Assembly: GCA_013298895.1 (NCBI GenBank)
Contig: JAAFJM010000004.1
Location: 62,001-126,000, forward strand
DNA from: Bacteroidota bacterium
Lineage (GTDB): Bacteria > Bacteroidota > Bacteroidia > UKL13-3
DNA: 64,000 nucleotides
Reading direction: 5' to 3'
Shown here: piece by piece, positions 4,246 through 53,680 of the stretch
Layout of the letters: each line of letters begins with the position of its first letter
Position numbering within the stretch: position 1 is the stretch's first letter
The notes under the pieces: model-generated
Database searches by the model: none
What the model was told of the DNA's origin: nothing
The model's input: the letters and a program-made list of their open reading frames with translations, nothing else
Position numbers and translations under genes: made by a program

Positions 4246-4329
4246 AATGGCAAATAAGCAAAAAATAACTATAATGGCAAAGGCAAAATTTGGGAAATTA
4301 ACTTAAAAGTAAAATGGCTTGAAAATAAA

Positions 4330-4360
4330 AAAAACCGCGTGTGGCTAGCAAGCGGTTTTT
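4330..4360 (-). terminator. Terminator downstream of prfB
   Basis: Inverted repeat AAAAACCGC (4330-4338) and GCGGTTTTT (4352-4360) with a 13-nt loop. It lies between the end of prfB and the start of holB and would act on minus-strand transcripts. T-runs on both sides could make it work in both directions. Confidence 0.75.
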
Positions 4361-4528
4361 AATTGAACAAAATTTAAGCCTATGAAAAACTATTTAATTA
4401 GTTAGTAGCCGTTACAAATGTAAAAACTCGCAGCATATTTACAACCACTCACATAAAAAAACTTGCTCTTAACATGCGGCATTTGTGTAAAAACATAATA
4501 ATCAATCATATAAAATTTTAAATTCAAA

Positions 4529-5615
4529 TTAATTTCCAGAGTTTTCCATTAAAAATGCCTTTATAAATAAATCCAAATCGCCATCCATAACTGCCTGAAC
4601 ATTACTTGTTTCGGTATCTGTTCTTAAATCCTTTACTAATTTGTATGGATGCATTACATAATTTCTTATTTGGCTGCCCCACTCTATTTTACGTTTACCA
4701 GCCTCTACTTTATCTTTTTCTTCATTACGCTTGCGCAATTCAATTTCGTAAAGTTGCGATTTTAACATTTTCATAGCACGTTCTTTGTTAGCACTTTGCG
4801 AACGTTCTACTTGACAAACAATTACTATTCCAGAGGGCTTATGGGTTAACTGAACTTTGGTTTCAACCTTATTTACGTTTTGACCACCTGCTCCACCCGA
4901 ACGAGATGTTTGAATTTCTATATCAGCATCCTTTATTTCTATTTCAATGGTATCATCAATAATTGGATAACAATAAACCGATGCAAAACTGGTATGTCTG
5001 CGTGCATTGCTATCAAATGGAGAAATACGAACCAATCTATGAACGCCATTTTCGCCTTTTAAAAATCCGTAAGCAAAACCTCCAGTAACTTCTATGCTGC
5101 ACGATTTAATACCTGCACCATCGCCCGCTTGTTCATCTACCACCGATGCTTTAAAGCCTTTTTTATCGGCATACATAATGTACATACGCATCAACATTTC
5201 GGCCCAATCTTGGCTTTCGGTTCCGCCAGCACCTGAGTTAATATTAATTACGCAATTAAACTGATCTTCTTCGGCACTCAGCATATTTTTAAACTCTAGT
5301 TCTTCTACTGTCTTGGTAGTTTGTTCAAAGTTTAAATCTAATTCATCTTCACTTACTTCATTAGCTTGATAAAATTCGTATAGAACAGCTAAGTCATCTA
5401 CTTTGGCTCTTGCTTCGGCAAAACCATCTGTCCATATTTTTTTTTGCTTAATTCCTTTTAGAACCGATTCTGCTCTCTTAGGATTGTCCCAAAAACTAGG
5501 TTCATGGGTTAGGTTTTCTTCCTCGTCTATTTGGTGTAATTTGGTAGCAACGTCAAAGATACCTCCTCAGTGCTTCCACTCTTTCATCCAAATTTTTTAA
5601 TTGATCGCTTGTCAT
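4529..5615 (-). CDS. prfB: Peptide chain release factor 2, made by programmed +1 frameshift
   Basis: RF2 terminates translation at UGA and UAA. The gene is read in two frames. Codons 1-20 run from ATG 5615 to CTT 5556-5558, followed by an in-frame TGA (5553-5555). Slipping +1 gives GAC (5552-5554) and a further 341 residues to the stop at 4529, about 361 in all, the normal RF2 length. The [16 protein letters not shown] (ISPFDSN) and GGQNVNK motifs identify RF2; SPF marks UGA recognition and GGQ is the hydrolysis loop. The slip site has an internal AGGAGG (5562-5567) one codon before CTT TGA C, the classical autoregulatory arrangement. Annotation from a single frame would truncate the protein at 5284. 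Confidence 0.93.
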
Positions 5616-6039
5616 AGTTGGCAAAAGTAAGTTTTTAGCCACAGATTACACAAAAGCCGCAGATTTATTAAAAATGTTATGGCCACGCGCTCGATTGCAT
5701 CCGGTTTTTATTAAGTTAAGGAATTGACTCTAACGGAGTCACATGTTTATAGAAAATATTTGCCACAGAACATAAGACCACTACTAATAGATTGGCAGGG
5801 TCGCACTCGTCAATTAATTTTTGATTGCTATAAATATTTGACCTTTACAAGGTCATAAATTCATTGACTTAATGACGTTATTTGCACACTTAAGAGATGC
5901 TAGCGAGTTTGGACAAAATACTTTTTATGCGCAATAATCCTTTGCTAACTTTTTAATCTTATAATTTTTCAAAATCTTGTAATTTTCAAAATCATAAGCA
6001 CTTATCAACATTTTTTAACCAAAAAAACTAAATTTAACC
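5616..6039. other. Intergenic region with small palindromes, no gene seen
   Basis: About 420 bp with stop codons in all frames. It contains two short palindromes: GACTC-TAACG-GAGTC (5726-5740) and TGACCTT-TAC-AAGGTCA (5839-5855), each followed by AT-rich sequence. These resemble small dispersed palindromic repeats of Bacteroidota and look like remnants of repeat elements. Confidence 0.5.
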
Positions 6040-6047
6040 TACCTTTG
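6040..6047 (+). promoter_or_regulatory. -7 promoter element of der
   Basis: TACCTTTG matches the Bacteroidota -7 consensus TAnnTTTG exactly and lies 9 bp before the der ATG, so the transcript would be almost leaderless. No clear TTG -33 element is visible. Confidence 0.6.
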
Positions 6048-6055
6048 CGCCTTTA

Positions 6056-7369
6056 ATGGGAAATATAGTAGCAATAGTAGGAAGACCAAATGTTGGAAAA
6101 TCAACACTTTTTAATCGTTTAACAGGCAATAAGCACGCCATTGTTGACGATTTTAGTGGCGTAACGCGCGATAGACATTATGGCAAAGCCGAGTGGCTTG
6201 ATAAAGAGTATAATGTAATTGATACAGGTGGGTATGTGCCAAATAGTGCCGATATTTTTGAATCGGCTATACGTAATCAGGTAAAAATAGCCATTCAAGA
6301 AGCCGATGTGCTTTTATTTATGGTGGATGTGGCAGTTGGTATAACTGACTTAGATACTGAACTATCAATTATGTTGCGTAAAAGCAAAAAACCAGTTTTA
6401 TTGGTAGTTAATAAGGTAGATAATAGCAACCGTCAGTTAGATGCACATGAGTTTTGGGCTTTAGGTTTTGATAATATTTATAATATTTCATCGGCAAGTG
6501 GTTCAGGAACCGGTGATTTGCTTGATGAGGCCATGAAACATTTAACTTTTGAAGATCAGGATACCGATGTAGATGAAGTTGATTTACCTAAAATTGCCAT
6601 TATTGGCAGGCCAAATGTTGGAAAATCAAGTTTGGTAAATGCATTATTGGGTCAAGAAAGAAATATAGTAACCGATGTAGCTGGAACCACCCGCGATGCC
6701 ATCAATTCGCATTATAAATTGTTTGATAAAGAATTTGTATTGGTTGATACAGCTGGTATTAGAAGAAAAAATCGTGTTTCAGAAGATTTAGAGTTTTATT
6801 CTGTAATGCGAAGTATCAAAGCTTTGGAGGATTGTGATGTAACTGTTTTGGTTATTGATGCTACTGTTGGCTTAGATAACCAAGATATGAACTTGGTTTC
6901 ATTGGCAATAAAGAATAATAAAGGCCTTGTTATTTTAGTTAACAAATGGGATTTGATAGAAAAAGACACTAAAACATCACTCGAGTTTGAAAAAGTAATT
7001 CGTGAAAAACTGAAACCATTTGATGATGTGCCTATTGTTTTTACTTCGGCAGTTACCAAACAACGTATTTTTAAAGCCATAGAAGAAGCCTTACATGTAG
7101 CAGAAAACAGAAAACGTAAAATTACTACAAGTAAATTCAATGATTATATTTTAGATAAAATAGAACATTACCCACCACCAAGTGTAAAAGGTAAGTTTGT
7201 AAAAATAAAATATGCTACTCAATTACCTGGACGTAGCCCACGTTTTGCATTTTTCTGTAACCACCCGCAATATGTAACTGATTCATACAAGCGTTATATT
7301 GAGAACAAAATTAGAGAAGAGTATGACTTTAAGGGAGTTCCAATAATTATTTATATGAGAGAAAAATAA
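6056..7369 (+). CDS. der: Ribosome-assembly GTPase Der (EngA)
   Basis: 437 residues with two tandem G domains. GRPNVGKST near residue 9 is the first P-loop and GRPNVGKSS near 185 the second. Each is followed by DTGG/DTAG and NKVD/NKWD motifs. A KH-like C-terminal domain carries the GRSPRFAFFCNHP segment. Der binds the 50S subunit and is essential for its maturation. Length and domain order are complete. A strong -7 element lies just upstream. Confidence 0.95.
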   Translation: MGNIVAIVGRPNVGKSTLFNRLTGNKHAIVDDFSGVTRDRHYGKAEWLDKEYNVIDTGGYVPNSADIFESAIRNQVKIAIQEADVLLFMVDVAVGITDLDTELSIMLRKSKKPVLLVVNKVDNSNRQLDAHEFWALGFDNIYNISSASGSGTGDLLDEAMKHLTFEDQDTDVDEVDLPKIAIIGRPNVGKSSLVNALLGQERNIVTDVAGTTRDAINSHYKLFDKEFVLVDTAGIRRKNRVSEDLEFYSVMRSIKALEDCDVTVLVIDATVGLDNQDMNLVSLAIKNNKGLVILVNKWDLIEKDTKTSLEFEKVIREKLKPFDDVPIVFTSAVTKQRIFKAIEEALHVAENRKRKITTSKFNDYILDKIEHYPPPSVKGKFVKIKYATQLPGRSPRFAFFCNHPQYVTDSYKRYIENKIREEYDFKGVPIIIYMREK

Positions 7370-7387
7370 AAAAAATTATGTTTAAAT

Positions 7388-7417
7388 TTTGTTATTAACA
7401 AACTATTCATATATTTG
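7388..7417 (+). promoter_or_regulatory. Promoter of the small Ala-rich lipoprotein gene
   Basis: TTTG at 7388-7391, an 18-nt spacer and TATATTTG at 7410-7417 fit the Bacteroidota -33/-7 consensus well. The predicted leader is about 35 nt. Confidence 0.7.
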
Positions 7418-7457
7418 CACCCGAATTAGAAAATCAAACAATTTAAAATCAAACAAA

Positions 7458-7685
7458 ATGAAAAAAGTATTATCAATCGTTGCCGCTTCTGCTATGTTAG
7501 CTATCGTAGCTTGTGGTCCTTCTGCTGAAGAAAAAGCTAAATTAGAAGCTCAAAAACAAGCTGATTCAATCGCTGCTGCTACTCGCGCTGCTGATTCATT
7601 AGCTGCTTTAGAAAACACTATGGTTGACACAACTGCTGTATCTGCTGATACAACTGCTGCTGCTACAACTGAAGCTGCTCACTAA
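7458..7685 (+). CDS. Small Ala-rich lipoprotein
   Basis: 75 residues. The start at 7458 gives a good lipoprotein signal peptide (MKKVLSIVAASAMLAIVAC) with the lipidated Cys at 19. A longer upstream frame would place a hydrophilic stretch before it. The mature part is short, charged, then rich in Ala, Asp and Thr (EEKAKLEAQKQADSIAAATR), probably one helix or coiled coil followed by a disordered tail. A near-consensus promoter and a strong terminator make it a monocistronic unit that may be highly expressed. Function unknown. The role of an abundant outer-membrane lipoprotein is inference only. Confidence 0.75.
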   Translation: MKKVLSIVAASAMLAIVACGPSAEEKAKLEAQKQADSIAAATRAADSLAALENTMVDTTAVSADTTAAATTEAAH

Positions 7686-7716
7686 TTTTTTTCTTTCAAA
7701 CAGAAACAAATTATTC

Positions 7717-7755
7717 AAAAATGCCATACTTTTTTAAGTGTGGCATTTTTATTTT
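7717..7755 (+). terminator. Terminator of the small lipoprotein gene
   Basis: A long hairpin pairs AAAAATGCCATACTT with AAGTGTGGCATTTTT around a very short loop, followed by more T-rich sequence. Confidence 0.8.
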
Positions 7756-7808
7756 ATACCCGTTTGATTATCAACTAATAAAAAAGTGAATTATTTGCGA
7801 ATAACTTT

Positions 7809-7837
7809 TTTGTTTTTATAAAAAAAAAGTACATTCG
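7809..7837 (+). promoter_or_regulatory. Probable promoter of rpmH
   Basis: TTTG ending at 7812, a 17-nt spacer and TACATTCG at 7830-7837, one mismatch from TAnnTTTG, 22 bp before the rpmH start. Confidence 0.5.
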
Positions 7838-7858
7838 CAGTCCTAAAAAATTAAGCTA

Positions 7859-8020
7859 ATGGCACAACGTACATACCAACCATCGGTAAGAAAAAGAAGA
7901 AACAAACACGGTTTCCGTAAAAGAATGGAATCTGCTGCGGGCAGAAAGGTTATTGCTGCACGTAGAGCACGTGGTAGAAAAAGATTAACTGTATCTGACG
8001 AAAAACGTCACAAAAAATAG
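7859..8020 (+). CDS. rpmH: 50S ribosomal protein L34
   Basis: 53 residues, extremely basic, with the L34 pattern from [19 protein letters not shown] through [17 protein letters not shown]. Full length for the bacterial family. It heads the conserved rpmH-rnpA-yidD group. The intergenic gap before rnpA is about 150 bp. Confidence 0.95.
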
Positions 8021-8167
8021 AAAACCTAATCCCGAGTTTTACACCTTAGGTTTAAAATTCGGGATTTGTTTTTTATTTGTTTTAAGTACACATGGTAAAT
8101 AGCATGTGTTTTTTTTGTTTATACACAAATCATTTCCAATTAAATAATTTACAGCATTTGTTTTAAG

Positions 8168-8581
8168 ATGAAATATCGTTTTCCTAAAAAAGAAAAAGTG
8201 GTATCGCTTAAAATTATCAATGCTCTCTTTGAAAAAGGTGCACATGGTGTTTTTGTGTTTCCCTTCAAAATCTCACTAGTAATCGTTCCTAATCAAGAAG
8301 TTTCGTGTCAGGTATTGATTATTGTGCCTAAACGCAATTTTAAAAAAGCGGTAGACAGAAACAGGATAAAACGGCAGATTAGAGAAATTTATCGCCTGAA
8401 TAATAGTTTGTTTTTACAGGGTTTAAAATCTTCACAAGTTCAAGTGGCTTTATCTATAGCATTTGTTGGTAAAACAGAGCTTGAATACTCCAAGGCCAAT
8501 CAAGCATTTATTAAAGTACTAAAACAATTAGCCGAATACATTGAAAAAAATAGTACAAGCGCCATTCATACTGCTAATTAA
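8168..8581 (+). CDS. rnpA: Ribonuclease P protein component
   Basis: 137 residues, basic. The RnpA signature [13 protein letters not shown] lies near residues 69-81, preceded by [11 protein letters not shown]. This protein binds the catalytic RNase P RNA and helps pre-tRNA 5' processing. The family's N-terminal segment ([20 protein letters not shown]) is present. Its 3' end overlaps yidD by 41 bp, which suggests coupled translation. Confidence 0.92.
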
Positions 8582-8762
8582 AATTTATCAGCATGTGGTT
8601 TCACCATATTTGCCCAATGCATGCAGGTATAATCCTACTTGTAGTCAATATGCTATTGAAGCATTAAATAAACATGGTGTTTTTAAAGGTTTATTTTTGG
8701 CTATTAAACGCATAAGTTCATGCCATCCTTGGGGCGGCAGCGGCTACGATCCAGTTCCTTAA
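8541..8762 (+). CDS. yidD: Membrane protein insertion efficiency factor YidD
   Basis: 73 residues. The [19 protein letters not shown] and [13 protein letters not shown] segments are diagnostic for YidD, a small membrane-associated protein that assists YidC. The start is a TTG at 8541 inside rnpA; it reads (M)[24 protein letters not shown], matching the family N-terminus. No ATG in frame would preserve this segment. Unlike many genomes, yidC does not follow; ppa does. Confidence 0.9.
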
Positions 8763-8808
8763 TTTTACATAATTTTAATCAAATCATCCAAAAAACACAT
8801 ATTAAGTA

Positions 8809-8816
8809 TATGTTTG
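8809..8816 (+). promoter_or_regulatory. -7 promoter element of ppa
   Basis: TATGTTTG matches TAnnTTTG, 19 bp before the ppa ATG. No clear -33 TTG is visible. Confidence 0.45.
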
Positions 8817-8834
8817 TAATAAATAAATATAAAT

Positions 8835-9380
8835 ATGTCAAATTTTAACCCATGGCACGATGTAAGTTTTGGTGATGATGCTCCCAATAACGTAACTGCA
8901 ATTATTGAAATACCTAAAGGAAGTAAAGGTAAGTTTGAGCTTGATAAAGATAGTGGAATGTTAAAATTGGATAGGGTTTTATTTTCTGCCGTTCATTATC
9001 CAGCCAATTATGGCTTCATTCCTCAAACTTATTGTGGCGACAAAGATCCTTTGGATATTTTGGTTATTACCTCTATTGAGTTACCTCAGCTCTGTCTAAT
9101 TGATGCCAAGGTAATTGGTGTAATGCGAATGGTAGACCAAGGCGAAGCTGATGATAAAATTATTGCTGTTGCTCAAAACGATATGTCGGTTAATTATATG
9201 AATGATATAAAAGAACTTCCGCCACACACCTTAACAGAAATGCGAAGATTTTTTGAGGACTATAAAAAATTGGAAAATAAGGAAGTAAAAGTGGAAGATT
9301 TTTTAGGAAGAGAGGAAGCTTTGAGGATTATAGAGGAAAGTATTGTTTTATATCGTGAAACTTTTTTACCACATAAATAG
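8835..9380 (+). CDS. ppa: Inorganic pyrophosphatase (family I, soluble)
   Basis: 181 residues. It hydrolyses PPi to 2 Pi and so drives biosynthetic reactions. Motifs visible in order: [17 protein letters not shown], the [25 protein letters not shown] region holding the Asp cluster that binds Mg2+, and [11 protein letters not shown]. Length fits the bacterial family I enzyme. It stands alone with its own -7 element; the ECF sigma gene begins about 40 bp downstream. Confidence 0.95.
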
Positions 9381-9423
9381 AAATTAGTAAATTTATTATC
9401 ATTGCAAACCAAAATATAAAAAC

Positions 9424-9981
9424 CTGAAATTAATACACAAATACAGAACAGAGGAAACATTAGTAGCTGCTTTAAAAGCTAAAAGTAGAGATGCGTTCGA
9501 TTATTTGTATGATAATTATAGCGAGGCTCTTTTTGGTGTTATCAATCGCATTGTTCAATCTGATGAAATTGCAAACGACATTTTACAGGAATCGTTTGTT
9601 AAAATTTGGAAAAACCTTGACTCTTATTCTAGTGAAAAAGGAAGTATTTACACTTGGATGTTAAATGTTTGTCGGAATTTAGCAATCGATACAGTGAGAT
9701 CTAAGGCTTACAAAAATGAAACACAAAACCAAAGTGTAGAGGATTCCGTAAATGATATTGATAAGTCAACACAGGTTTTTGGCAAAGAAGATTTTATTGG
9801 CTTAAAAAAGGTAATTGATAAATTAAGACCAGAATACCTCGAATTAATTAATAAAATTTATTTTGAAGGCTATACACACGATGAGGTTTCTAAGGAATTT
9901 CAAATTCCTTTGGGTACAGTAAAAACAAGAATTAGAGCGGCCATTTTACAATTAAGGGAGGCTTTGAAAGAAAATGAATAA
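9424..9981 (+). CDS. ECF RNA polymerase sigma factor (non-canonical start)
   Basis: Region 2 (AFDYLYDNYSEALFG through TWMLNVCRNLAIDTVRSKAY) and region 4 (LRPEYLELINKIYFEGYTHD, then GTVKTRIRAAILQLREAL) are both clear. The frame is open from 9391 but contains no ATG before region 2. A TTG at 9505 would cut off the first helix. The best-fitting start is CTG at 9424, giving 185 residues beginning LKLIHKYRTEETLVAAL, a typical N-terminus and length. A near-consensus -7 element (TATCATTG, 9397-9404) lies 20 bp before it. The 3' end overlaps the anti-sigma gene by 8 bp, so the two are co-translated. Confidence 0.8.
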   Translation: MKLIHKYRTEETLVAALKAKSRDAFDYLYDNYSEALFGVINRIVQSDEIANDILQESFVKIWKNLDSYSSEKGSIYTWMLNVCRNLAIDTVRSKAYKNETQNQSVEDSVNDIDKSTQVFGKEDFIGLKKVIDKLRPEYLELINKIYFEGYTHDEVSKEFQIPLGTVKTRIRAAILQLREALKENE

Positions 9982-10780
9982 GCAGGATTACATAGAAAGT
10001 GGAATTTTAGAAAGCTATGCATTGGGCATTTGTAGTGATGCTGAAAAAGCAGAGGTAGAGAAAATTTGTGCCGAAAATGCTGATATTAAAGCAGAGCTTT
10101 TAGCTGTTCAATCTGCAGTGTTCTCTTATGGTCAATTACATAAAGTCAAGCCTAAAGCTAATATAAAAGCTAATTTGTTGAATCAATTAGATTTTGAAGA
10201 ACTAATTGAACCAATTAAGCAAGCAGATAAAATAATTCCAATTCAAACCAAAAAATATCCTTTTGCAGTAGCTGCATCGCTTACGTTATTTGGTTTAAGT
10301 TTGATTGGAAACTATGTTACATATTCTAAATATCAAGAGGCGAATGAAAAAATTACAGTTTTAAATGCTGAAAAAACATCATTGGTGAATAATTTTAAAA
10401 AAAACCAAGTAAGGTTAGAAACATTACAAGCAGATTTATTGATTACGAGCAATCCAAATGTTCAAAAAGTAATATTAAAAGGTGTCGAAAAATCGCCTGA
10501 AAGCTTGGTAATGGTTTATTGGAATAAAGAATCGAAAGAAGTTTTTATGGAAGTAAAAAACCTTCCAATTGCTAGTGCTGGAAAACAATATCAGCTTTGG
10601 GCTATAGTGGATGGAAAGCCAGTTAATGCTGGAATGATAATTGAAAACAACGCGGATTCTAGTTTTATAAAAATGAATAGTTTTGAAACGGCACAGGCTT
10701 TTGCCATTACTTTAGAAAATGAAGGTGGAAGTGAAAATCCTACACTTACAGAAATGTATGTATTGGGTGCAACCCTTTAA
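9974..10780 (+). CDS. Anti-sigma factor, RskA-like, membrane-anchored
   Basis: 268 residues. The N-terminus (about 1-90) is a cytoplasmic anti-sigma domain without an obvious zinc HxxxCxxC motif. One membrane segment lies at about 93-113 (FAVAASLTLFGLSLIG), then a coiled stretch, then a periplasmic RskA-type domain including VMVYWNKESKEVFMEVKNLP and YQLWAIVDGKPVNAG. It overlaps the sigma gene and most likely holds that sigma factor at the membrane until a signal arrives. The signal is not evident. A terminator follows. Confidence 0.85.
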   Translation: MNKQDYIESGILESYALGICSDAEKAEVEKICAENADIKAELLAVQSAVFSYGQLHKVKPKANIKANLLNQLDFEELIEPIKQADKIIPIQTKKYPFAVAASLTLFGLSLIGNYVTYSKYQEANEKITVLNAEKTSLVNNFKKNQVRLETLQADLLITSNPNVQKVILKGVEKSPESLVMVYWNKESKEVFMEVKNLPIASAGKQYQLWAIVDGKPVNAGMIIENNADSSFIKMNSFETAQAFAITLENEGGSENPTLTEMYVLGATL

Positions 10781-38278: not shown

Positions 38279-38527
38279 TTATTCCATAATTAGGTATAAA
38301 CCCCAAACAACCATAGCTGCACCAATACTGGTTATACCATAAAGTATAAAATGATAATACTCGTTAGAGATGGGCATGGTTAAATTGGTTATACATCCTA
38401 AAAATAAAATAACAGCACCAATGGCCAATAATTTAAACCCTTTTTGAGTTCTAGCTTCTCTGGCTGTTTTATTTTCTAAATCCATTTCTAAGTTGTTTTC
38501 TAACATGTCTGTGTCTAAGTTTTCCAT
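38279..38527 (-). CDS. Small two-pass membrane protein, unknown function
   Basis: 82 residues. An acidic N-terminus (MENLDTDMLENNLEMDLENK) leads into two membrane segments, about 29-48 (FKLLAIGAVILFLGCITN) and 58-78 (YHFILYGITSIGAAMVVWGLY). I do not recognise the family. It lies 106 bp upstream of mrdA on the same strand but with no overlap, so co-transcription is uncertain. Confidence 0.6.
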   Translation of the reverse strand: MENLDTDMLENNLEMDLENKTAREARTQKGFKLLAIGAVILFLGCITNLTMPISNEYYHFILYGITSIGAAMVVWGLYLIME

Positions 38528-38710
38528 AGGTTTTCGGTTTAAAAGAGTTGATGGTTAATAATATGACTTTTAACAAACATACATTTAGTGTGCTGAATTA
38601 CAAACGGTTTAAAAATATTTAATTTAAAAAAGTGTCATTTTTTTAAAAATAAATTCACGTAATAAAAAACCAAATGTTTGGTAGGTGGAAGTTTAAATGC
38701 AAAATCAGTT

Positions 38711-39142
38711 GGTGCGGGAAATTGTAAAGAAGTAACATGTTACGTCTTTAGCTAAAAACACGTTGCATGCAACGTCTCTAAATGGTCGTTGGGAAACACA
38801 ATGGTTTTCTTGTGGCAAGGTAGAAACGTTTAATTAAACGTCTTTACAGCCAATGTTGTCCTCCTCATCCAAAATCAATATATTTGAATTACGCTAATAA
38901 TTGCACGCGAGGTAAGGCTGCAATGGCGAAAGGATAGTAGTATAATTCGGTGCTGGAAATTATAGAGACGTAACATGTTACGTCTTTAGCTAAAAAGACT
39001 TTGCGTGCAACGTCTCTAAATGGTTGTTGGGAAATTCAATGGTTTTCTTTGGGCAAGGTAGAGACGTTTAATTAAACGTCTTTACAGCCGATGTTGTCCT
39101 CCTCGCCAAAATCAATAAATTTGAATAATGCTAATAATTTTT
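38711..39142. repeat. Tandem repeat, period about 238 bp, two diverged copies
   Basis: Copy A (38711-38940) and copy B (38949-39142) align over most of their length, e.g. GGTGCGGGAAATTG / GGTGCTGGAAATTA and AAATGGTCGTTGGGAAACACAATGGTTTTCTT. Each holds three palindromes; in copy B AGACGTAACATGTTACGTCT (38966-38985) and AGACGTTTAATTAAACGTCT (39062-39081) are perfect. Each copy ends in the shorter promoter-bearing repeat described separately. No gene is seen in 38528-39144. Confidence 0.85.
38847..38932 (+). repeat. Promoter-bearing repeat, copy R1
   Basis: Begins CAGCCAATGTTGTCC. TTG (38856-38858), 20-nt spacer and TATATTTG (38879-38886) form a Bacteroidota promoter. GCTAATAATTGCA follows. TTGCA (38901-38905) and TGCAA (38919-38923) form a hairpin whose last A starts ATG GCG AAA (38923), but the frame stops after four codons. 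Confidence 0.75.
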
Positions 39143-39147
39143 AAATG
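39085..39147 (+). repeat. Promoter-bearing repeat, copy R2
   Basis: CAGCCGATGTTGTCC, TTG (39094-39096), 19-nt spacer, TAAATTTG (39116-39123), then GCTAATAATT running straight into AAATGG, the start of the next gene (39145). The hairpin found in other copies is missing. Confidence 0.75.
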
Positions 39148-39540
39148 GAAAAAATTAAAAAAAAAGAAGCCATACATGGTTTAATCCTTTTTATTGGAGG
39201 GATTTTGATATTTATAATAAGCAATTTTTTTGTAAATAAATTTGATTTCAAAAAAAACGGAAAACATAGTATTGCTGAAATTTATGACTTTCATGTTTTA
39301 GCAAAATCTGGACATTCTATCTGTTTTAAATTTTCAATTAATAATCAACAATTTAAAAGTTGTCAATTTGAAACTTTTTCGAACAGTACTCTAAGGTCGA
39401 TGCTTTTGGGCAAAAAATTCCCTATAATTTATAATCCCGAAAAGCCAGAAGAATGTGATATATTAATTACAGAGTATGATTTTAAAGAATATGATTTAGT
39501 ATACCCAGACAGTCTTTACTGGGTTGAAGAAAATAGATAA
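39145..39540 (+). CDS. Cassette gene 1: membrane-anchored protein, DUF3592-like
   Basis: 131 residues. One membrane segment (about 13-31, LILFIGGILIFIISNFF) follows a Lys-rich start. The soluble part reads KHSIAEIYDFHVL, HSICFKFSINNQQFKS, then FPIIYNPEKPEECDIL, the layout of DUF3592-type domains (beta-rich, ending in a 'v.YnP.nP' motif). Its start codon lies at the end of repeat R2, whose promoter should drive it. Function unknown. The low GC and repeat setting mark it as accessory. Confidence 0.65.
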   Translation: MEKIKKKEAIHGLILFIGGILIFIISNFFVNKFDFKKNGKHSIAEIYDFHVLAKSGHSICFKFSINNQQFKSCQFETFSNSTLRSMLLGKKFPIIYNPEKPEECDILITEYDFKEYDLVYPDSLYWVEENR

Positions 39541-39552
39541 CAAATATGAATT

Positions 39553-39612
39553 AGTCGATGTTGTCGTCCTCACCAAAATCAATATATTTGAATAAAGCTA
39601 ATAATTGAATAG
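39553..39612 (+). repeat. Promoter-bearing repeat, copy R3
   Basis: GTCGATGTTGTCGTCC, TTG (39561-39563), 19-nt spacer, TATATTTG (39583-39590), then AATAAAGCTAATAATTGAA. It starts 12 bp after cassette gene 1 and lies about 100 bp upstream of cassette gene 2. The 3' hairpin is decayed. Confidence 0.75.
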
Positions 39613-39716
39613 CATAGTAAAAAGCGGTTTGCAAATACTTGGAGTAAATTGTTTGGAGGGTAAATTTAAATAATTAGGGTTTCTTGGATATTGGACACCA
39701 AAATAATAATATAATT

Positions 39717-40208
39717 TTGAACACACGTGTATTTATAATTATTGTACTTCTTGCGGGTAGTTGTGCTAATAGGCGCAATATTGTTGAAAGTAATGAACCT
39801 CCACCGGGCGGTACTGAAGGAATCTTTCATTACAATTGTGATACTTTTAACGAGAATAATGAGATTGAAATTTCGGAACACACGGTTTCAAAACCTATTA
39901 ATTTTGAAAACGAAGTTGTTTTCTTTGATAAAGTAATAGCAAAATCAATTTGCGATAGTTTTGTAAAAAAGCATTTAGCAAGTGTGAATATAGTTTACAG
40001 AATCACATACTTAACCGACACTCAAGGATTCGTAAACCAGTTAATAGTGGAAGATTTGAAAAATAAAAAAGAATCAAAATTATTATCAAAGTTAACATCG
40101 AAAACACACACTATTGGTTATTCAGAACAAAATAAGGTTGAGAACGTGAAAGAATTCTATATTAAATTCAAAAGTCTAAATGATTGTAAGTACTATTTTC
40201 GCAATTAG
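39717..40208 (+). CDS. Cassette gene 2: lipoprotein of unknown function
   Basis: 163 residues from a TTG at 39717 (another TTG lies at 39684). The start NTRVFIIIVLLAGSC is a lipoprotein signal with Cys at 15. The mature region has a Pro/Gly turn (NEPPPGGTEG), then VNIVYRITYLTDTQGFVNQL, which resembles TonB C-terminal-like or mechanosensor-like beta/alpha modules; I cannot assign a family. A 19-bp motif TTTGGAGGGTAAATTTAAA (39652-39670) lies upstream and recurs before cassette gene 3. Confidence 0.6.
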   Translation: MNTRVFIIIVLLAGSCANRRNIVESNEPPPGGTEGIFHYNCDTFNENNEIEISEHTVSKPINFENEVVFFDKVIAKSICDSFVKKHLASVNIVYRITYLTDTQGFVNQLIVEDLKNKKESKLLSKLTSKTHTIGYSEQNKVENVKEFYIKFKSLNDCKYYFRN

Positions 40209-40310
40209 TTTTAGAACTTTAAACCAAAAGTTTTCAATAAGCAATTTACAATATACAAGTATAAATGATTTGGATGGTAAATTTAAAGTAGCATAAAACA
40301 TTGAAAAATT

Positions 40311-40775
40311 ATGAAACTAATATATTTATTTTTAACACTAATGGTTCCTTTTTCTAAAAGTGCTTCTGTTGAAAATTTACTTGAAGATAGAATAAAAATA
40401 CTTGAGAAAACATATACTCTTGAGTTAAATCGTATTTACTATTACAAAGGCGAAAAGGTGTTGAACAGTAAACATTTATCAACTTTTATTAGTTGTGGAA
40501 TTAACATTAAAGATATTAAAAGAATTGTAACTCAAAGATATTTGAAAAAGGATTATAATTATATTCCAATAACAATAGAAATGTGGTCATTTGAAAACGA
40601 CCAAAGGGCTATGTCTTTTCAGAAAGAAATTGCCGCCAAATTACCATTAGTAAAGTGTGCAATGTTAAAAATAGAATGTACTTATTTTGTAAAAAATAAC
40701 ATTGTTATTTCAATAACAGGAAATCCAAAACAACAATCTCTTTTGGATAAAATATATAGGAATTTAGATATATAA
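40311..40775 (+). CDS. Cassette gene 3: secreted protein of unknown function
   Basis: 154 residues. A signal peptide (MKLIYLFLTLMVPFSKSAS) precedes a mixed alpha/beta domain with three Cys (STFISCGINIKD, LPLVKCAMLKIECTY), which could form a disulphide. The TTTGGATGGTAAATTTAAA motif (40269-40287) lies 23 bp upstream and matches the one before cassette gene 2 in 18 of 19 positions. I do not recognise the family. Confidence 0.6.
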   Translation: MKLIYLFLTLMVPFSKSASVENLLEDRIKILEKTYTLELNRIYYYKGEKVLNSKHLSTFISCGINIKDIKRIVTQRYLKKDYNYIPITIEMWSFENDQRAMSFQKEIAAKLPLVKCAMLKIECTYFVKNNIVISITGNPKQQSLLDKIYRNLDI

Positions 40776-40783
40776 AGACATTC

Positions 40784-40866
40784 CAGCCGATGTTGTCGTC
40801 CTCGCCAAAATAAATATATTTGAATAAGCTAATAATTGCAAGCGAGGAGGTATGCAATGGCGAAAG
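40784..40866 (+). repeat. Promoter-bearing repeat, copy R4 (best preserved)
   Basis: CAGCCGATGTTGTCGTCC, TTG (40793-40795), 19-nt spacer, TATATTTG (40815-40822), GCTAATAATT, then TTGCA (40836-40840) / TGCAA (40853-40857) hairpin enclosing AGCGAGGAGGTA. ATG (40857) uses the last A of the stem and starts cassette gene 4. CCTCGC and GCGAGG within the repeat can also pair. Confidence 0.8.
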
Positions 40867-41303
40867 TTTTACTAATGAAAAACGATCAAATACATTCCAA
40901 TTTAATAGTTTTTGCTACACTGTTTTTTAGTGTTGCTATTGTTACACTTTTCTTTATTATTAATTGGAAGGACGATAATTCCTTACCTTACAACATAAAG
41001 TTTATTATTAATTTTTGGCTAACAATTGCTTCTTTGGTAAATATTATCACTCTCTTAAACTGGAAGTTCGTTTACTATGATATTGACCATATTTATTATC
41101 GTCCCATGTATTCAAAAAAGATGGTAGTAGTGAAGAAAACAGACATCATTACATTAACCAACCTGTTTACATTTAATGATTATTTGAATTACAGAATACA
41201 GTATAAAAATATTTCAGGAGAAATTCAATCAATAGTTTTCCTAAGTTTGAAATCAAAAAAAGAAATTCGATACATTATAGACCAAATAAAGTATGAGGAT
41301 TAA
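40857..41303 (+). CDS. Cassette gene 4: two-pass membrane protein with PH-like tail
   Basis: 148 residues. The start ATG GCG AAA lies inside repeat R4. Two membrane segments (about 14-36, LIVFATLFFSVAIVTLFFII, and 48-68, FIINFWLTIASLVNIITLL) precede a beta-rich cytosolic part: FVYYDIDHIYYRPMYSKKMV, then SLKSKKEIRYIIDQIK, the layout of bacterial PH-like membrane proteins. Cassette gene 5 starts 6 bp downstream, so the two form one unit. Confidence 0.65.
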   Translation: MAKVLLMKNDQIHSNLIVFATLFFSVAIVTLFFIINWKDDNSLPYNIKFIINFWLTIASLVNIITLLNWKFVYYDIDHIYYRPMYSKKMVVVKKTDIITLTNLFTFNDYLNYRIQYKNISGEIQSIVFLSLKSKKEIRYIIDQIKYED

Positions 41304-41308
41304 ATTAT

Positions 41309-41701
41309 ATGATGAAGTTATCTTTTAAAACAATTGCCTTAATTATATTATTTGCGGGCTTATTGATGTTTTTATATTTTAAAAATCGTAAAAAAGTAAT
41401 TCGGGATGAATTTAAATTATATTATTACGATAATTACGACTATTGCAATGTTTATCTTGGAGGAATGGCTTTATTGCCATCTGGCTGCGATTCGGCCAAA
41501 TGGAACGATTTAATCATTGTAACAAAAAGCGATAAATGGAGATGTTCAATAGATAAAGAATGTTACTTTATTATTGATATGAATAAATACATGGCAGACC
41601 CAAGGCAAGAGTTAAGTTCAGGAGTTAAAGGCCCTTACAGTTTGGAGGAGTTTTCTCTAATTGACCCTTTAAAAGAAGTTTCGTTTGAAGGAGCTTATTG
41701 A
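41309..41701 (+). CDS. Cassette gene 5: membrane-anchored protein, unknown function
   Basis: 130 residues. A single N-terminal membrane segment (about 6-24, KTIALIILFAGLLMFLYFK) is followed by a small exposed domain with five Cys, including DYCNVYLGG, SGCDSAKW, WRCSIDKECYFII. Acidic and Tyr-rich. Co-transcribed with cassette gene 4 by spacing. No family recognised. The order 'membrane PH-like + Cys-rich anchored domain' could be a partner pair, but that is guesswork. Confidence 0.6.
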   Translation: MMKLSFKTIALIILFAGLLMFLYFKNRKKVIRDEFKLYYYDNYDYCNVYLGGMALLPSGCDSAKWNDLIIVTKSDKWRCSIDKECYFIIDMNKYMADPRQELSSGVKGPYSLEEFSLIDPLKEVSFEGAY

Positions 41702-41708
41702 GTTTATT

Positions 41709-41792
41709 CCAGCCGATGTTATAGTCCTCATCAAAATCAATATATTTGAATAAAGCTAATAAACGCAAGCGAAGATGTTTACAATGGCAGAA
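41709..41792 (+). repeat. Promoter-bearing repeat, copy R5
   Basis: CCAGCCGATGTTATAGTCC; TTA (41719-41721) in place of TTG, 19-nt spacer, TATATTTG (41741-41748), AATAAAGCTAATAA, a weakened hairpin and ATG GCA GAA (41784). That frame stops after ten codons, about 10 bp before cassette gene 6. Confidence 0.7.
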
Positions 41793-41828
41793 CACCTAAC
41801 ACAAATAAAGAAATGAAATAGAATAACA

Positions 41829-42134
41829 ATGAAAGATATAATATTAGCAATAATAGTATGCAATGAGAATTTTAAAGGAGAGTATGCCTTGAAATACCTT
41901 CTTGGAAAAACTACTCAATATGATTCATTTAAAAAATTAATTAATGAACTTCAAACTTCAAATTTTATTGCTGTAGAAACCATAGGAGGCTTAAGTACAT
42001 ATTCACCGACAGATAATGGAATTAATTATATTAACGGTAAAGATTTGAATACCATTATCGAGAATGTGAAAATATATTTTACTAAAGATGAATATTTCGA
42101 GGATTTAAAATCTTATTTCAATAAATTGCTATAA
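41829..42134 (+). CDS. Cassette gene 6: small soluble protein, winged-helix-like
   Basis: 101 residues, no signal peptide or membrane segment. The layout GEYALKYLLGKTTQYDSF, then LINELQTSNFIAVETIGG and TYSPTDNGINYI resembles a small winged-helix domain (helix, helix, beta hairpin), which would suggest nucleic-acid binding, but the match is by eye only. It follows repeat R5, whose truncated reading frame ends just upstream. Confidence 0.55.
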   Translation: MKDIILAIIVCNENFKGEYALKYLLGKTTQYDSFKKLINELQTSNFIAVETIGGLSTYSPTDNGINYINGKDLNTIIENVKIYFTKDEYFEDLKSYFNKLL

Positions 42135-42184
42135 TTTAATAACGCTAATAATTACAAACGAGGACGCCTGTAATGGCTAAAAAT
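42133..42184 (+). repeat. Promoter-bearing repeat, copy R6 (3' half only)
   Basis: AACGCTAATAATT, then TTACA (42152-42156) / TGTAA (42169-42173) hairpin enclosing AACGAGGACGCC, and ATG GCT AAA (42173). The promoter half is absent. The stem differs from R1/R4 at one pair (G-C to A-T) but still closes. Confidence 0.65.
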
Positions 42185-42249: not shown

Positions 42250-45200
42250 TTATAAGCCCGAACTAATAGCATTTAGTTTATCAGTAAACTCTTTGGCTAC
42301 TGCTTCTTGTTGGTTCATTTGAGCCACTTGCATACAGTAAGTCATTATCTGAATATTTTCTTCTAACTCAGGTTTTACCAATTTGTATTTGCTTGAACTA
42401 CGGAAAGTTTTGTAGTATTTAGCTTTGGTTTCGCAGGTATTTAAAATTTCGCGTAATAAAGCATTTGCTTTATTTGCTGAACCTGCTAAGAAATAACCTT
42501 CGGCCAAACGTACCGAAAATACATCATGCGCAATGGTTTTTGATGGCAATACTTTTTGGCAATAGTCTAATGCTTTTATTGCACTGTCTTTTTTACCTTC
42601 TCTAACCAATTGTTCAGCCAAACGATAGAATATGTTACGGAAATTTTTAGTTTGACGTAAAATAGTTTCATCTAAGTATACACCAGGTTGATCCATATTA
42701 CCCCACTTAAATTTGGTCATTAAGTTGGTCCATAAAATTTTGCTATTAATACGTCCCGGACTTGGGTCATTAGGGTCTTGTTGGTTAAATATAGGTACCA
42801 AACGGTAAGTTAAACCTTCCATTTGGAAATGGCTTTGCATATTTAAATATACATCGCTACCAGTAGTAATAGCCCAATAAATTGGTCTTTTGTTAATGTT
42901 AGTTGCTACAATATCTAAAGTTAATAAATCAGGTTTTAGCATATTGCTGCTATTGCTAATTTCAAACTTAATACTATCCACCATTAAAGCTGCATCTTCT
43001 GGTTGAACTACACCATTTTTCAAACAAGCTTCTTTGTCTATTTTTACACTAAAACGTTTGGTAGGGTAGTAGTTAATATATTCGCCACCTTGCAATTGCA
43101 CTTGGCTTTCTTTGTTATCATCACCCATAAACTGTAATAATTTTCCTAAATCGTAGTAGTCGGTTTTGTTTAAACCCAAAGCAGGATTTTCGTAATAAAC
43201 TACATAATTTCTTTTATCAGCTGCATAAGTTTCAGGACTCCAACTAAATTCTACTGGTTTTCCATCGTAAGCAGGGCGTCTTAAGCCATCTGCATACCAA
43301 TCGGTTCCTAATAAACTTAAATTAATAATTCTGATATCACTTCTAATATTTTCTACGTTTTGAGCATACCAAAGTGGGTAAGTATCGTTATCGCCATTGG
43401 TAAATAAGATGGCATCTTTAGCACAACTATTTAAATAATCTTCAGCAAAATGTAAAGCTGTAAAACGATTAGAACGGTTATGGTCATCCCAGTTTTGTTC
43501 TGCCATTAAAATAGGCGCACCTAATAAACAAGCTATGGTAGTAATAGCAGTTGCTGCCATGGCATTCATTTTTTTCGATAACCAATCAATAATTGCTAAT
43601 ACGCCTAATCCTATCCAAATAATAAAAGTTTGGTATGAACCTACATAAGCATAATCGCGTTCACGCGGCTGATGCGCAGGGAAATTCAAATATAAAATAA
43701 TGAAGAAACCTGTAAATAAAAACAAAGTAGTAACCACAGTTGCATCTTCCTTTTGTTTTTTGAAATGGAAAATCAAACCTAAAATACCCAATATTAATGG
43801 AATACCAAAATATACATTTCTAGCTTTATTGTCCTTAATAATTGCAGGCATATCTTTTTGTGGTCCTAATCTCCATTCGTCAATAAAACTAATGCCACTA
43901 ATCCAATTTCCTCGGGTTGCATCGCCATAACCTTGGTCATCATTTTGTCTTCCAACAAAGTTCCAGAAGAAATAACGCCAATACATAAATCCTAATTGAT
44001 ACGACAATAAGAAATCAATGTTTTTGCCAAAAGTAGCTTTTTTACCTTCAGGAATATTTTCCCAACTGCGGTACGCTTGAATATAATCGCCTCTATCAGC
44101 CCACATACGTGGCAATATTGTACAATCTTTAGGGTCGTAAACTCTTTCTAATTTTTCACCTGCTTCTACATAACTTTCTTTGCCATTAGCATCAGTTAAT
44201 CTGCGGTAGTTCATACCTTTCGATTTGGTATCGATAGGGCGAGCGTAAAAATATTGACCATACAATAAAGGATTATCGCCATACTGTTCACGGTTAATGT
44301 ACGATAACAAAGCAAAAGGTTGGTCAGGGTCGTTCATGTCAATTGGCGGATTTCCTAACGAACGAATGATAATCATTGCGTAGCTCGAAAAACCGATTAC
44401 AATAAACGAAAATGCTAAAACCATGATGTTTTTTACCGCATTGCTAATCTTAGCATAAAAGAATATTATATAGATTAAACCTGTTAAAAAAGCCCAACCT
44501 ACTAAAGTTCCAATTCCTGAATTGATATTAAATGAAACCAATACCAACGATGTATAACATGCAATGGCAATGTATAAACTAGTTTTCTTGTTGGTTTGTG
44601 TGTAATGTAAACCAGAAGCCATTAAAGCCAACATGATTACAATTAATAACAATGCACCTGAGTTAGTGCCCATTCCTAATGAGTTTACAGTAAAGTAGTC
44701 TAATTTGGTTGCTAAATTTGGTAAACCTGGAATAACACCAAATTGTACAAAACCAATAGCTAAAATGGCTACAGCACTGGCTTTTAAGAAGCCCGGTAAA
44801 GTGTATTTGTTCTTTTTAAAATAGTATACATACACAATAGCTGGAATAACCAATAAGTTCAATAAATGGACACCAATAGCCAAACCAATTAAGTAAGCAA
44901 TTAATACAATCCAACGGTCAGCACCTTTTTCATCGGCATTGTCTTCCCATTTTAAAATACACCAAAAAGTTAAGGTAGTAAAAAAACTTGACGAAGCGTA
45001 AACCTCAGCTTCAACAGCCGAAAACCAGAATGTATCGCTAAAAGTTAATACCAAAGCTCCTACTAAACCTGCAGCCATAACTGCAAAAGTTTGTTGGCCA
45101 CTAATTTCATTAACTGTTTTGTTAATTATTTTACGGCCTAAGTGTGTAATGGTCCAAAAGGTAAACATAACACATAAAGCACTGGTAGTAGCCGAAACCA

Positions 45201-45438
45201 TGTTAACCATAAATGCTACTTTGCTAGGATCGGCAGCAAAAAGTGAAAACACACGACCAATCATTAAAAACAAAGGTGCTCCTGGCGGATGGCAAATTTG
45301 TAAACGATACGATGCTGAAATAAACTCACCACAATCCCAAAAACTAACAGTAGGTTCTAGCGTAAGTGTGTAAGTAATAATTGAAATAATAAATGTAACC
45401 CAACCGAGTACATTGTTGCTTAATTTGTATTGATTCAT
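42250..45438 (-). CDS. DUF2723 membrane protein (glycosyltransferase family GT117)
   Basis: 1062 residues. The N-terminal half (about 1-620) has about 12-14 membrane segments. The start TLTLEPTVSFWDCGEFI and HPPGAPLFLMIGRVFSLF are hallmarks of DUF2723, now placed in CAZy family GT117 with similarity to protein O-mannosyltransferases (the Asp-Glu of WDCGEF corresponds to their catalytic acidic loop). The C-terminal third is soluble and probably periplasmic. It may add sugars to envelope proteins or lipids; the substrate is unknown. It ends next to the cassette region. Confidence 0.88.
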   Translation of the reverse strand: MNQYKLSNNVLGWVTFIISIITYTLTLEPTVSFWDCGEFISASYRLQICHPPGAPLFLMIGRVFSLFAADPSKVAFMVNMVSATTSALCVMFTFWTITHLGRKIINKTVNEISGQQTFAVMAAGLVGALVLTFSDTFWFSAVEAEVYASSSFFTTLTFWCILKWEDNADEKGADRWIVLIAYLIGLAIGVHLLNLLVIPAIVYVYYFKKNKYTLPGFLKASAVAILAIGFVQFGVIPGLPNLATKLDYFTVNSLGMGTNSGALLLIVIMLALMASGLHYTQTNKKTSLYIAIACYTSLVLVSFNINSGIGTLVGWAFLTGLIYIIFFYAKISNAVKNIMVLAFSFIVIGFSSYAMIIIRSLGNPPIDMNDPDQPFALLSYINREQYGDNPLLYGQYFYARPIDTKSKGMNYRRLTDANGKESYVEAGEKLERVYDPKDCTILPRMWADRGDYIQAYRSWENIPEGKKATFGKNIDFLLSYQLGFMYWRYFFWNFVGRQNDDQGYGDATRGNWISGISFIDEWRLGPQKDMPAIIKDNKARNVYFGIPLILGILGLIFHFKKQKEDATVVTTLFLFTGFFIILYLNFPAHQPRERDYAYVGSYQTFIIWIGLGVLAIIDWLSKKMNAMAATAITTIACLLGAPILMAEQNWDDHNRSNRFTALHFAEDYLNSCAKDAILFTNGDNDTYPLWYAQNVENIRSDIRIINLSLLGTDWYADGLRRPAYDGKPVEFSWSPETYAADKRNYVVYYENPALGLNKTDYYDLGKLLQFMGDDNKESQVQLQGGEYINYYPTKRFSVKIDKEACLKNGVVQPEDAALMVDSIKFEISNSSNMLKPDLLTLDIVATNINKRPIYWAITTGSDVYLNMQSHFQMEGLTYRLVPIFNQQDPNDPSPGRINSKILWTNLMTKFKWGNMDQPGVYLDETILRQTKNFRNIFYRLAEQLVREGKKDSAIKALDYCQKVLPSKTIAHDVFSVRLAEGYFLAGSANKANALLREILNTCETKAKYYKTFRSSSKYKLVKPELEENIQIMTYCMQVAQMNQQEAVAKEFTDKLNAISSGL

Positions 45439-52525: not shown

Positions 52526-53680
52526 ATGCGTTTATACGAACAAAAAAAATGGTGGAAGCGAGCCTTGGCTTTAATAGCTGTTTGCATTGGTGTTTTTTCA
52601 ATTTGGTACACCAGTAAATTGGTAAAACAACTGGCTAACGAGGAACAGAAAAAAATTAAGCTTTGGGCTAATGCCACACAATCAATGGCTAAGGCCGAAG
52701 GTAATATTGATTTTTTACTTGATATTGTAACGGGTAATGAAACGATACCAATCATACTGACTGACAATAACGACAAAATAATTAGTTATAGAAATTTAGA
52801 TTCAATTCAAGCTAAGGATACTGCTTTTTTAAATGCGGAATTGATTGAAATGAAGAATCAACACGACCCAATTAAAATTGTGTATGATGCTGAAAATAAT
52901 TTTTATAATTTATTGTATTACAAAAATTCCGTTATTTTAACTCAATTAAAAGCATATCCCGCCATTCAATTAGCACTGATTAGTTTTTTTGCTATTATGA
53001 GTTATTTGGCATTAAGTAGTAGCCGGAGAGCCGAACAAAATCAAGTGTGGGTGGGTATGAGTAAAGAAACGGCCCATCAACTTGGAACACCTATTTCATC
53101 ATTAAATGAGTGGATAAATTTATTGCGTGAAACACCTAAAGAAGAACAAGATTATTTATTAGACGAACTACAAAATGATACTAAACGATTAGAATTAATA
53201 ACAGAACGTTTTAGTAAAATAGGCTCAGAGCCAGTCCTCAAAGAGGAAAACATGGATTTGGTAGTTGAGAACTCCATGCAATATTTAAAAACTCGCGTTT
53301 CAAGTCAAGTGGCAATTCATATAAATATTATACAGCCTGGAAATTGGGCTAAAATAAATATTCCACTATTTGATTGGGTTTTAGAAAATTTGTGTAAAAA
53401 TGCCATTGATGCCATGAATGGCAAAGGGGAATTAAATATCAATATCAGCAGCGATATTAAACATGTGTATATTGATATTAGAGATACTGGAAAGGGAATT
53501 CCTAAATCAAAATTTAATACCGTGTTTAAGCCTGGCTACACTACTAAAAAACGAGGCTGGGGACTTGGTTTATCCCTTGTTAAACGTATTGTGGAAGAAT
53601 ACCACAAAGGAAAAATATTTGTTAGAAACAGCGAGCTTGGAAAAGGTACTACATTTAGAATTATGCTGAATGCTATTTAG
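52526..53680 (+). CDS. Membrane sensor histidine kinase
   Basis: 384 residues. Membrane segments at about 12-29 and 145-163 bracket a periplasmic sensor region of about 110 residues. The H-box is MSKETAHQLGTPISSL with His184 as phosphate acceptor. The N-box NLCKNAIDAM, the G1 box DTGKGIP and GLGLSLVKRIVEEY complete the ATPase domain. No response regulator is adjacent. It overlaps murQ by 8 bp at the 3' end (convergent). Confidence 0.92.
   Translation: MRLYEQKKWWKRALALIAVCIGVFSIWYTSKLVKQLANEEQKKIKLWANATQSMAKAEGNIDFLLDIVTGNETIPIILTDNNDKIISYRNLDSIQAKDTAFLNAELIEMKNQHDPIKIVYDAENNFYNLLYYKNSVILTQLKAYPAIQLALISFFAIMSYLALSSSRRAEQNQVWVGMSKETAHQLGTPISSLNEWINLLRETPKEEQDYLLDELQNDTKRLELITERFSKIGSEPVLKEENMDLVVENSMQYLKTRVSSQVAIHINIIQPGNWAKINIPLFDWVLENLCKNAIDAMNGKGELNINISSDIKHVYIDIRDTGKGIPKSKFNTVFKPGYTTKKRGWGLGLSLVKRIVEEYHKGKIFVRNSELGKGTTFRIMLNAI

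What the first reader, a model, noticed from the sequence alone, without database searches (positions are those of the whole stretch)
38847..42184. Array of small unknown genes, each fed by a copy of a promoter-bearing repeat
Five copies of a repeat (R1-R5) and a half-copy (R6) lie between six short genes. R1-R4 contain TTG, a 19-20 nt spacer and TAnATTTG, a near-perfect Bacteroidota promoter; R5 has TTA for TTG. In R2 and R4 the following gene starts directly at the repeat's end; in R3 and R5 it starts about 100 and 40 bp further on. R1 and R6 lead to no gene. The genes themselves are unlike one another (lipoprotein, secreted, membrane, soluble). This looks like an exchange or accumulation site where a repeat supplies the transcription and start signals for foreign or duplicated small genes. 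An alternative is that the repeats are relics of the 5' end of one duplicated gene.
Basis: partly seen in the sequence, partly recalled or inferred. Interest (0 to 1): 0.75.

Follow-up and report, generated by a model that had tools for sequence, protein, structure and literature searches.

The report
Shuffled small-gene array spaced by repeats
In a freshwater Bacteroidota lineage, one chromosomal slot holds a changing row of small, possibly protective genes separated by a promoter-like hairpin repeat, and three sister species carry different selections of genes joined at that repeat.

Summary
The repeat is real. R is a ~78-nt element: two hairpins in inverted orientation (GCC-[GATGTTGGC gtcctc GCCAACATC]-core-[ATTGCAGGC gaggac GCCTGCAAT]-GGC) with a core holding TAnnTTTG. 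R1, R4 and R5 are full copies; R2 and R3 are left halves, R6 a right half. Short solo copies without the promoter core occur across the genus and in a few related genera, where both hairpins are kept by compensatory changes: a REPIN/BIME-like family. The long promoter-bearing form was found only in three sister MAGs (own, C8_MAG_00008, RE-27jun17-99). The gene bordering the array on the right is the same in all three, the left one in two; seven congeners lack it, and one has the two flanking genes almost adjacent. Array contents differ, and blocks shared between species tend to end at R (28 of 48 ends, 16% expected). All cassette genes are co-oriented; a sister array has a SUKH-1 immunity gene, and an R-bordered island in a sister species has a SUKH gene plus an unrelated promoter-bearing repeat. 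No recombinase or RAYT adjoins. Best reading: an orphan-immunity-like cassette array, rAID-like in layout, with a REPIN-derived repeat as recombination seam and probable promoter. Exchange-site idea: supported; promoter: plausible, unproven; gene relic: rejected.

The parts
38709..38850 (.). non-coding palindromic unit, first (partial) copy, preceding R1
   Evidence: 90% identical to 38947-39088; copies elsewhere in the genome and in sister species
38847..38929 (+). R1, full copy; TTG 38856, TATATTTG 38879-38886
38930..39088 (.). non-coding palindromic unit forming a gene-less cassette between R1 and R2
   Evidence: R-unit-R block shared with G006 at 87% in different surroundings
39085..39139 (+). 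R2, left half (hairpin 1 + promoter core); TTG 39094, TAAATTTG 39116-39123
39145..39540 (+). gene A, 131 aa, one N-terminal membrane segment; weak DUF3592 similarity below cut-off
39552..39609 (+). R3, left half; TTG 39561, TATATTTG 39583-39590
39684..40208 (+). gene B, lipoprotein-like (probable start TTG near 39720)
   Evidence: start inferred from the signal sequence
40311..40775 (+). gene C, 154 aa, secreted; no family
40783..40863 (+). R4, full copy; TTG 40793, TATATTTG 40815-40822
40875..41303 (+). gene D, membrane protein, 142 aa; conserved in arrays of G006 and G003
   Evidence: 96% and 93% identity
41309..41701 (+). gene E, 130 aa; conserved in arrays of G006 and G003
   Evidence: about 95% identity
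41709..41789 (+). R5, full but degenerate copy (TTA in place of TTG)
41829..42134 (+). gene F, 101 aa; weak DUF4364 similarity below cut-off
42123..42178 (+). R6, right half; hairpin 2 (from 42151) is the right border of the array
   Evidence: homology to G006 starts at 42151; the same border half-R in G003

Best explanation
A lineage-specific cassette array, probably an orphan-immunity-like island, at one chromosomal slot. Cassettes are one or two small genes (or a non-coding unit) separated by R. R descends from a REPIN-like two-hairpin element whose spacer acquired a Bacteroidota-type promoter core. Copies of R in tandem give the seams at which cassettes are gained, lost and re-joined, most simply by homologous recombination between R copies or other short repeats, and each R gives the downstream cassette its own promoter, so that a gene can be expressed wherever it lands. 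Shown: the repeat, its relation to the solo elements, the changing content of one slot, block ends at R, co-orientation. Inferred: promoter activity, RecA-type rather than site-specific exchange, an immunity role of the genes in this window.
For: Full-length R copies in the own genome lie only in this array. R is the long form of a two-hairpin element; in solo copies both hairpins show compensatory changes (3 and 5 pairs changed on both sides; covariation score reached by 0 of 500 shuffles in each). Long-R core by exact pattern only in two other genomes of 84,980 species, both same genus. Border shared: left flank 94% with G003, right flank 95% with G006, and the same half-R border in all three; G009 has left-flank ORF and right-flank gene ~160 bp apart, and six further congeners show no R at the right-flank gene. 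Shuffling: window R4-D-E-R5 = G006 6716-7721 at 94% in other surroundings; left-half R + X genes lie between D and E in G003 but after E in G006; all four joints D-E, D-R, X-E, X-R exist around one shared 34-nt tail. 28 of 48 block-end clusters lie at R, 16% expected. Genes between R copies are all in R's orientation in the three arrays. SUKH-1 in the G006 array (E 1e-8) and in a G003 island bordered by R (E 1.8e-12).
Against: No transcription data. The TAnnTTTG pattern is only weakly enriched upstream of other genes here. R arms diverge between orthologous cassettes about as fast as plain intergenic DNA (82-84% against 86%; the core 91%), so selection on R is not strongly shown. None of the six genes in this window has a recognised immunity family. 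All genomes are MAGs; arrays of repeats are prone to misassembly. The block-end statistic treats dependent ends as independent.
Confidence: 0.55

Rival explanations
1. Site-specific cassette exchange: R is the recombination site of a tyrosine recombinase, as in rAID arrays or integrons, and the array is a cluster that has lost or never carried its recombinase locally.
For: Co-oriented short genes, conserved intergenic motif, SUKH genes, half-sites ending at one position (left halves end at AATT, right halves begin at ATTGCA), hairpin-forming repeat.
Against: No recombinase beside any of the arrays. The only tyrosine recombinases shared by all three species are two single-copy ones that look like XerC and XerD. 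R has no attC consensus ends. Array R copies no longer fold well (z -2.1, -0.4, +0.7 against -7.5 for a solo element).
Confidence: 0.18
2. Passive REP insertion: R is a REPIN-like element that repeatedly landed or was duplicated between unrelated small genes of a fast-changing island; neither promoter nor exchange role, the motif being an accident of an A+T-rich spacer.
For: Solo copies are typical REPs, many lying a few bases behind the 3' ends of genes and without the promoter core; arms decay at near-neutral rate; MITE-like palindromic units share the island.
Against: Long form found only in the arrays and their borders; uniform orientation with the genes; block ends at R; left-half copies sit directly before start codons of genes A and X; a second, unrelated repeat with a promoter-like motif precedes genes in another island.
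Confidence: 0.22
3. The repeats are relics of the 5' end of one duplicated gene.
For: R ends in ATGGCGAAA or a variant in most full copies.
Against: Frames after ATGGC differ and most close at once; the ATG lies inside the inverted repeat; R exists as a solo intergenic element.
Confidence: 0.02

Closest known systems
rAID (recombinase-associated acquired interbacterial defence) arrays of Bacteroidales (PMC12247911)
   Same: Array of co-oriented short low-G+C genes, conserved intergenic sequence motifs, SUKH-domain orphan immunity genes, phylum Bacteroidota.
   Different: No tyrosine recombinase at the array; the repeat is a REPIN-like element; found in a freshwater lineage. Whether the rAID motif resembles R could not be compared here.
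REPIN / BIME (paired inverted REPs)
   Same: Two hairpins in inverted orientation with short unpaired ends, solo and clustered intergenic copies, hairpins kept by compensatory change.
   Different: No GTAG tag, no RAYT beside it in 20 loci checked; the long form carries a promoter core and separates gene cassettes.
Promoter-carrying MITEs (Correia elements of Neisseria; BrickBuilt of Porphyromonas; review PMC10969869)
   Same: Short repeated element with promoter sequences that can drive the gene beside it.
   Different: R is confined to one array and its relatives, and separates cassettes rather than being scattered before many genes.
Integron cassette arrays and CALINs (attC arrays)
   Same: Co-oriented small genes separated by a hairpin-forming repeat, content differing between relatives.
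   Different: No RYYYAAC/GTTRRRY ends, no integron integrase found, array copies fold poorly.

Membership tests
rAID array | co-oriented short genes of about 100-300 codons | tested here: met
   genes of 101-174 codons in the window array, all + strand; likewise in sister arrays
rAID array | conserved intergenic sequence motifs | tested here: met
   R between cassettes
rAID array | adjacent tyrosine recombinase | tested here: not met
   none of the PF00589 matches of the three genomes adjoins an array
rAID array | orphan immunity genes | tested here: inconclusive
   SUKH-1 in the G006 array and a G003 island; none in the window's own six genes
REPIN/BIME | two inverted hairpins maintained as structures | tested here: met
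   solo copies: covariation above all shuffles; z -7.5; much weaker in array copies
REPIN/BIME | conserved 5' tag (GTAG or CGTC) at the hairpin foot | tested here: not met
   foot reads GCC...GGC
REPIN/BIME | cognate RAYT transposase flanked by the element | tested here: not met
   20 of the best PF01797 loci in the genus have no R core within about 1.5 kb; remaining loci not examined
integron / CALIN | attC with RYYYAAC and GTTRRRY ends | tested here: not met
   R ends are AGCC... and ...TGCAATGGC
integron / CALIN | integron integrase in the genome | tested here: inconclusive
   tyrosine recombinases listed, not typed against an IntI model; none at the array
Bacteroidota sigma-ABfr promoter | TAnnTTTG at -7 with TTTG/TTG about 19 nt upstream | tested here: met
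   13 of 26 copies with a left arm have TTG-N18-20-TAnnTTTG; consensus from PMC7366714
Bacteroidota sigma-ABfr promoter | transcription starts about 7 nt downstream | not testable with these tools
   needs RNA 5'-end data

The most novel reading that the evidence does not exclude
A domesticated REPIN-type element serves as a combined promoter and recombination seam of a recombinase-free gene-capture array for orphan immunity genes, a third way of building such arrays beside integrons and rAID.
Probability: 0.25. Interest if true: 0.75.

Novelty: new variant of a known kind. Interest (0 to 1): 0.52.

Why it matters
If R both drives and joins cassettes, it shows how an ordinary REP-type repeat can be turned into a platform that collects small, possibly protective genes without a dedicated recombinase. 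The array is compact, has an array-free relative, and three sister species with different contents, so gain, loss and expression can be tested directly in environmental time series.

Tried and rejected
RAYT link: PF01797 genes are common in the genus, but 20 of 20 loci examined lack R. Single long hairpin for R: arms can pair, but covariation on the full-length set did not exceed shuffles; the two-hairpin form is supported only by the solo copies. Long-R core not found in IMG/VR viral contigs (exact pattern) and no PLSDB plasmid match. In 395 genomes across the phylum the R model hit only two others, weakly. Gene relic: rejected. Structure predictions of genes E and C were too poor to use (pLDDT 49 and 36), so no fold search was run. 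NCBIfam and PADLOC gave nothing for the cassette genes. R divergence between orthologous cassettes first looked like swapping of R copies, but plain intergenic DNA diverges nearly as much. An empty-site search for the R at G003:C36:99118 gave a border, not an insertion: homology to the other species ends at R.

Full report
Observation. Six R copies lie at 38847-42178. Profile and BLAST searches recover them all, and in the own genome every long match is in this array; elsewhere there are only fragments of one half. The full unit is ~78 nt: AGCCGATGTTGgCGTCCTCgCCAAAATCAATAwATTTGAATAAnGCTAATAATTGCArGCGAGGACGCCTGCAATGGC. R1, R4 and R5 are full; R2 and R3 stop after GCTAATAATT; R6 keeps the right end. 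TTG-N19/20-TAnnTTTG is exact in R1-R4.

What R is. Short relatives occur singly in all nine congeners searched and in a few members of related genera of the family. They lack the TAnnTTTG core, often lie a few bases behind the 3' end of a gene, and consist of two hairpins in inverted orientation with loops GTCCTC and GAGGAC that are complementary to each other. In the solo set 94% of cells pair in each hairpin, with 3 and 5 pairs changed on both sides, and the covariation score was reached by none of 500 shuffles. A solo copy folds at z -7.5; R1, R4 and R5 fold at z -0.4, -2.1 and +0.7. So R in the array is a long, partly decayed derivative of a REPIN-like element whose spacer gained a promoter-like core. 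Its foot is GCC/GGC, not the GTAG or CGTC of the REP superfamilies (PMC3733652).

The slot. The array lies between the rodA-mrdA block with ORF 38279-38527 and the convergent 1062-aa gene 42250-45438. In G006 the right border is the same gene, with homology starting exactly at the right hairpin of R6 (window 42151); in G003 the array adjoins the same left block, now inverted and ~31 kb from the right-flank gene, which keeps a half-R. In G009 the left-flank ORF and the right-flank gene are ~160 bp apart, an array-free arrangement, and no R was seen at the right-flank gene in the other congeners (two of those ends are only partly covered). An exact pattern for the long core found only two genomes in 84,980 species, both freshwater MAGs of this genus.

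Content and shuffling. Genes D and E with both flanking R copies recur in G006 at 94% in other surroundings. The unit left-half R + X genes lies between D and E in G003 and after E in G006. All four joints (D-E, D-R, X-E, X-R) exist, meeting at a shared 34-nt tail TATGAGGATTAAATTATATGATGAAGTTATCTTT. The non-coding palindromic unit with R on both sides is also shared in new surroundings. Of 48 clustered ends of shared blocks, 28 lie at R, which covers 16% of the arrays; the ends are not independent, so the nominal P of 6e-11 overstates the case. Genes between R copies are all co-oriented with R in the three arrays.

Function of the genes. The window's six genes have no family above cut-off. The G006 array has a SUKH-1 gene (E 1e-8), and a G003 island bordered by R has another (E 1.8e-12). 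In that island four copies of an unrelated ~190-bp repeat precede genes and contain TTG-N19-TACTTTTG or close variants. An orphan-immunity role is therefore likely for the array class and inferred for this window.

Mechanism. Shown: repeat, its solo relatives, shared slot, different content, seams at R. Inferred: promoter activity, homologous exchange, immunity. A dedicated recombinase is not supported: none adjoins, and the only two shared by all three species look like XerC and XerD. Between orthologous cassettes the R core is 91% identical and the arms 74-85%, against 86% for plain intergenic DNA and 95-97% for the genes, so the arms are nearly free to drift while the core may be constrained; the numbers are small.

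Known relatives. In layout this resembles rAID arrays (PMC12247911) but lacks their recombinase; in origin it resembles REPINs; in the promoter it resembles Correia-type MITEs (PMC10969869). It is not an integron by its repeat ends. I file it as a new variant of a known kind.

Limits. All genomes are MAGs; two G003 contigs end inside R repeats. No RNA data. Rfam was not searched.

Noticed in passing
window 38709-38850 and 38930-39088; own contigs C67, C23, C35; L036, L037: A ~150-nt non-coding unit with several palindromes (GAGACGTAACATGTTACGTCTT, GAGACGTTTAATTAAACGTC) is dispersed in this genome and its sisters, with and without R beside it: a separate MITE-like family.
   Followed up: partly
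L036 (G003 C36), between genes at 6708-10223: Four ~190-bp intergenic repeats unrelated to R precede small genes including a SUKH gene and carry TTG-N19-TACTTTTG or close variants; weak relatives occur in five other congeners.
   Followed up: partly
window 39617-39671 and 40262-40287; L036 rev 4200-6240; L035 near 6040-6100: A further repeat (GGTAAAAAGCGGTTTGCAAATACTTGGAGTGAATGGTTTGGAGGG) follows R3, with a fragment before gene C, and recurs in sister islands.
   Followed up: no
own contigs C72, C70, C63; G003 C61: Pairs of tandem tyrosine-recombinase genes (about 308 and 286 aa), nearly identical copies in several contigs: looks like a mobile element.
   Followed up: no
G003:C39:131379-131841 (L038): A fragment of the histidine-kinase gene of window 53217-53679 lies directly beside an R copy.
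   Followed up: no
G003:C36 and C32 contig ends (L036, L039): 298-bp tandem units each containing an R variant (TTTAGATTTAGCTAATA core) end both contigs, probably an assembly break in a repeat array.
   Followed up: no
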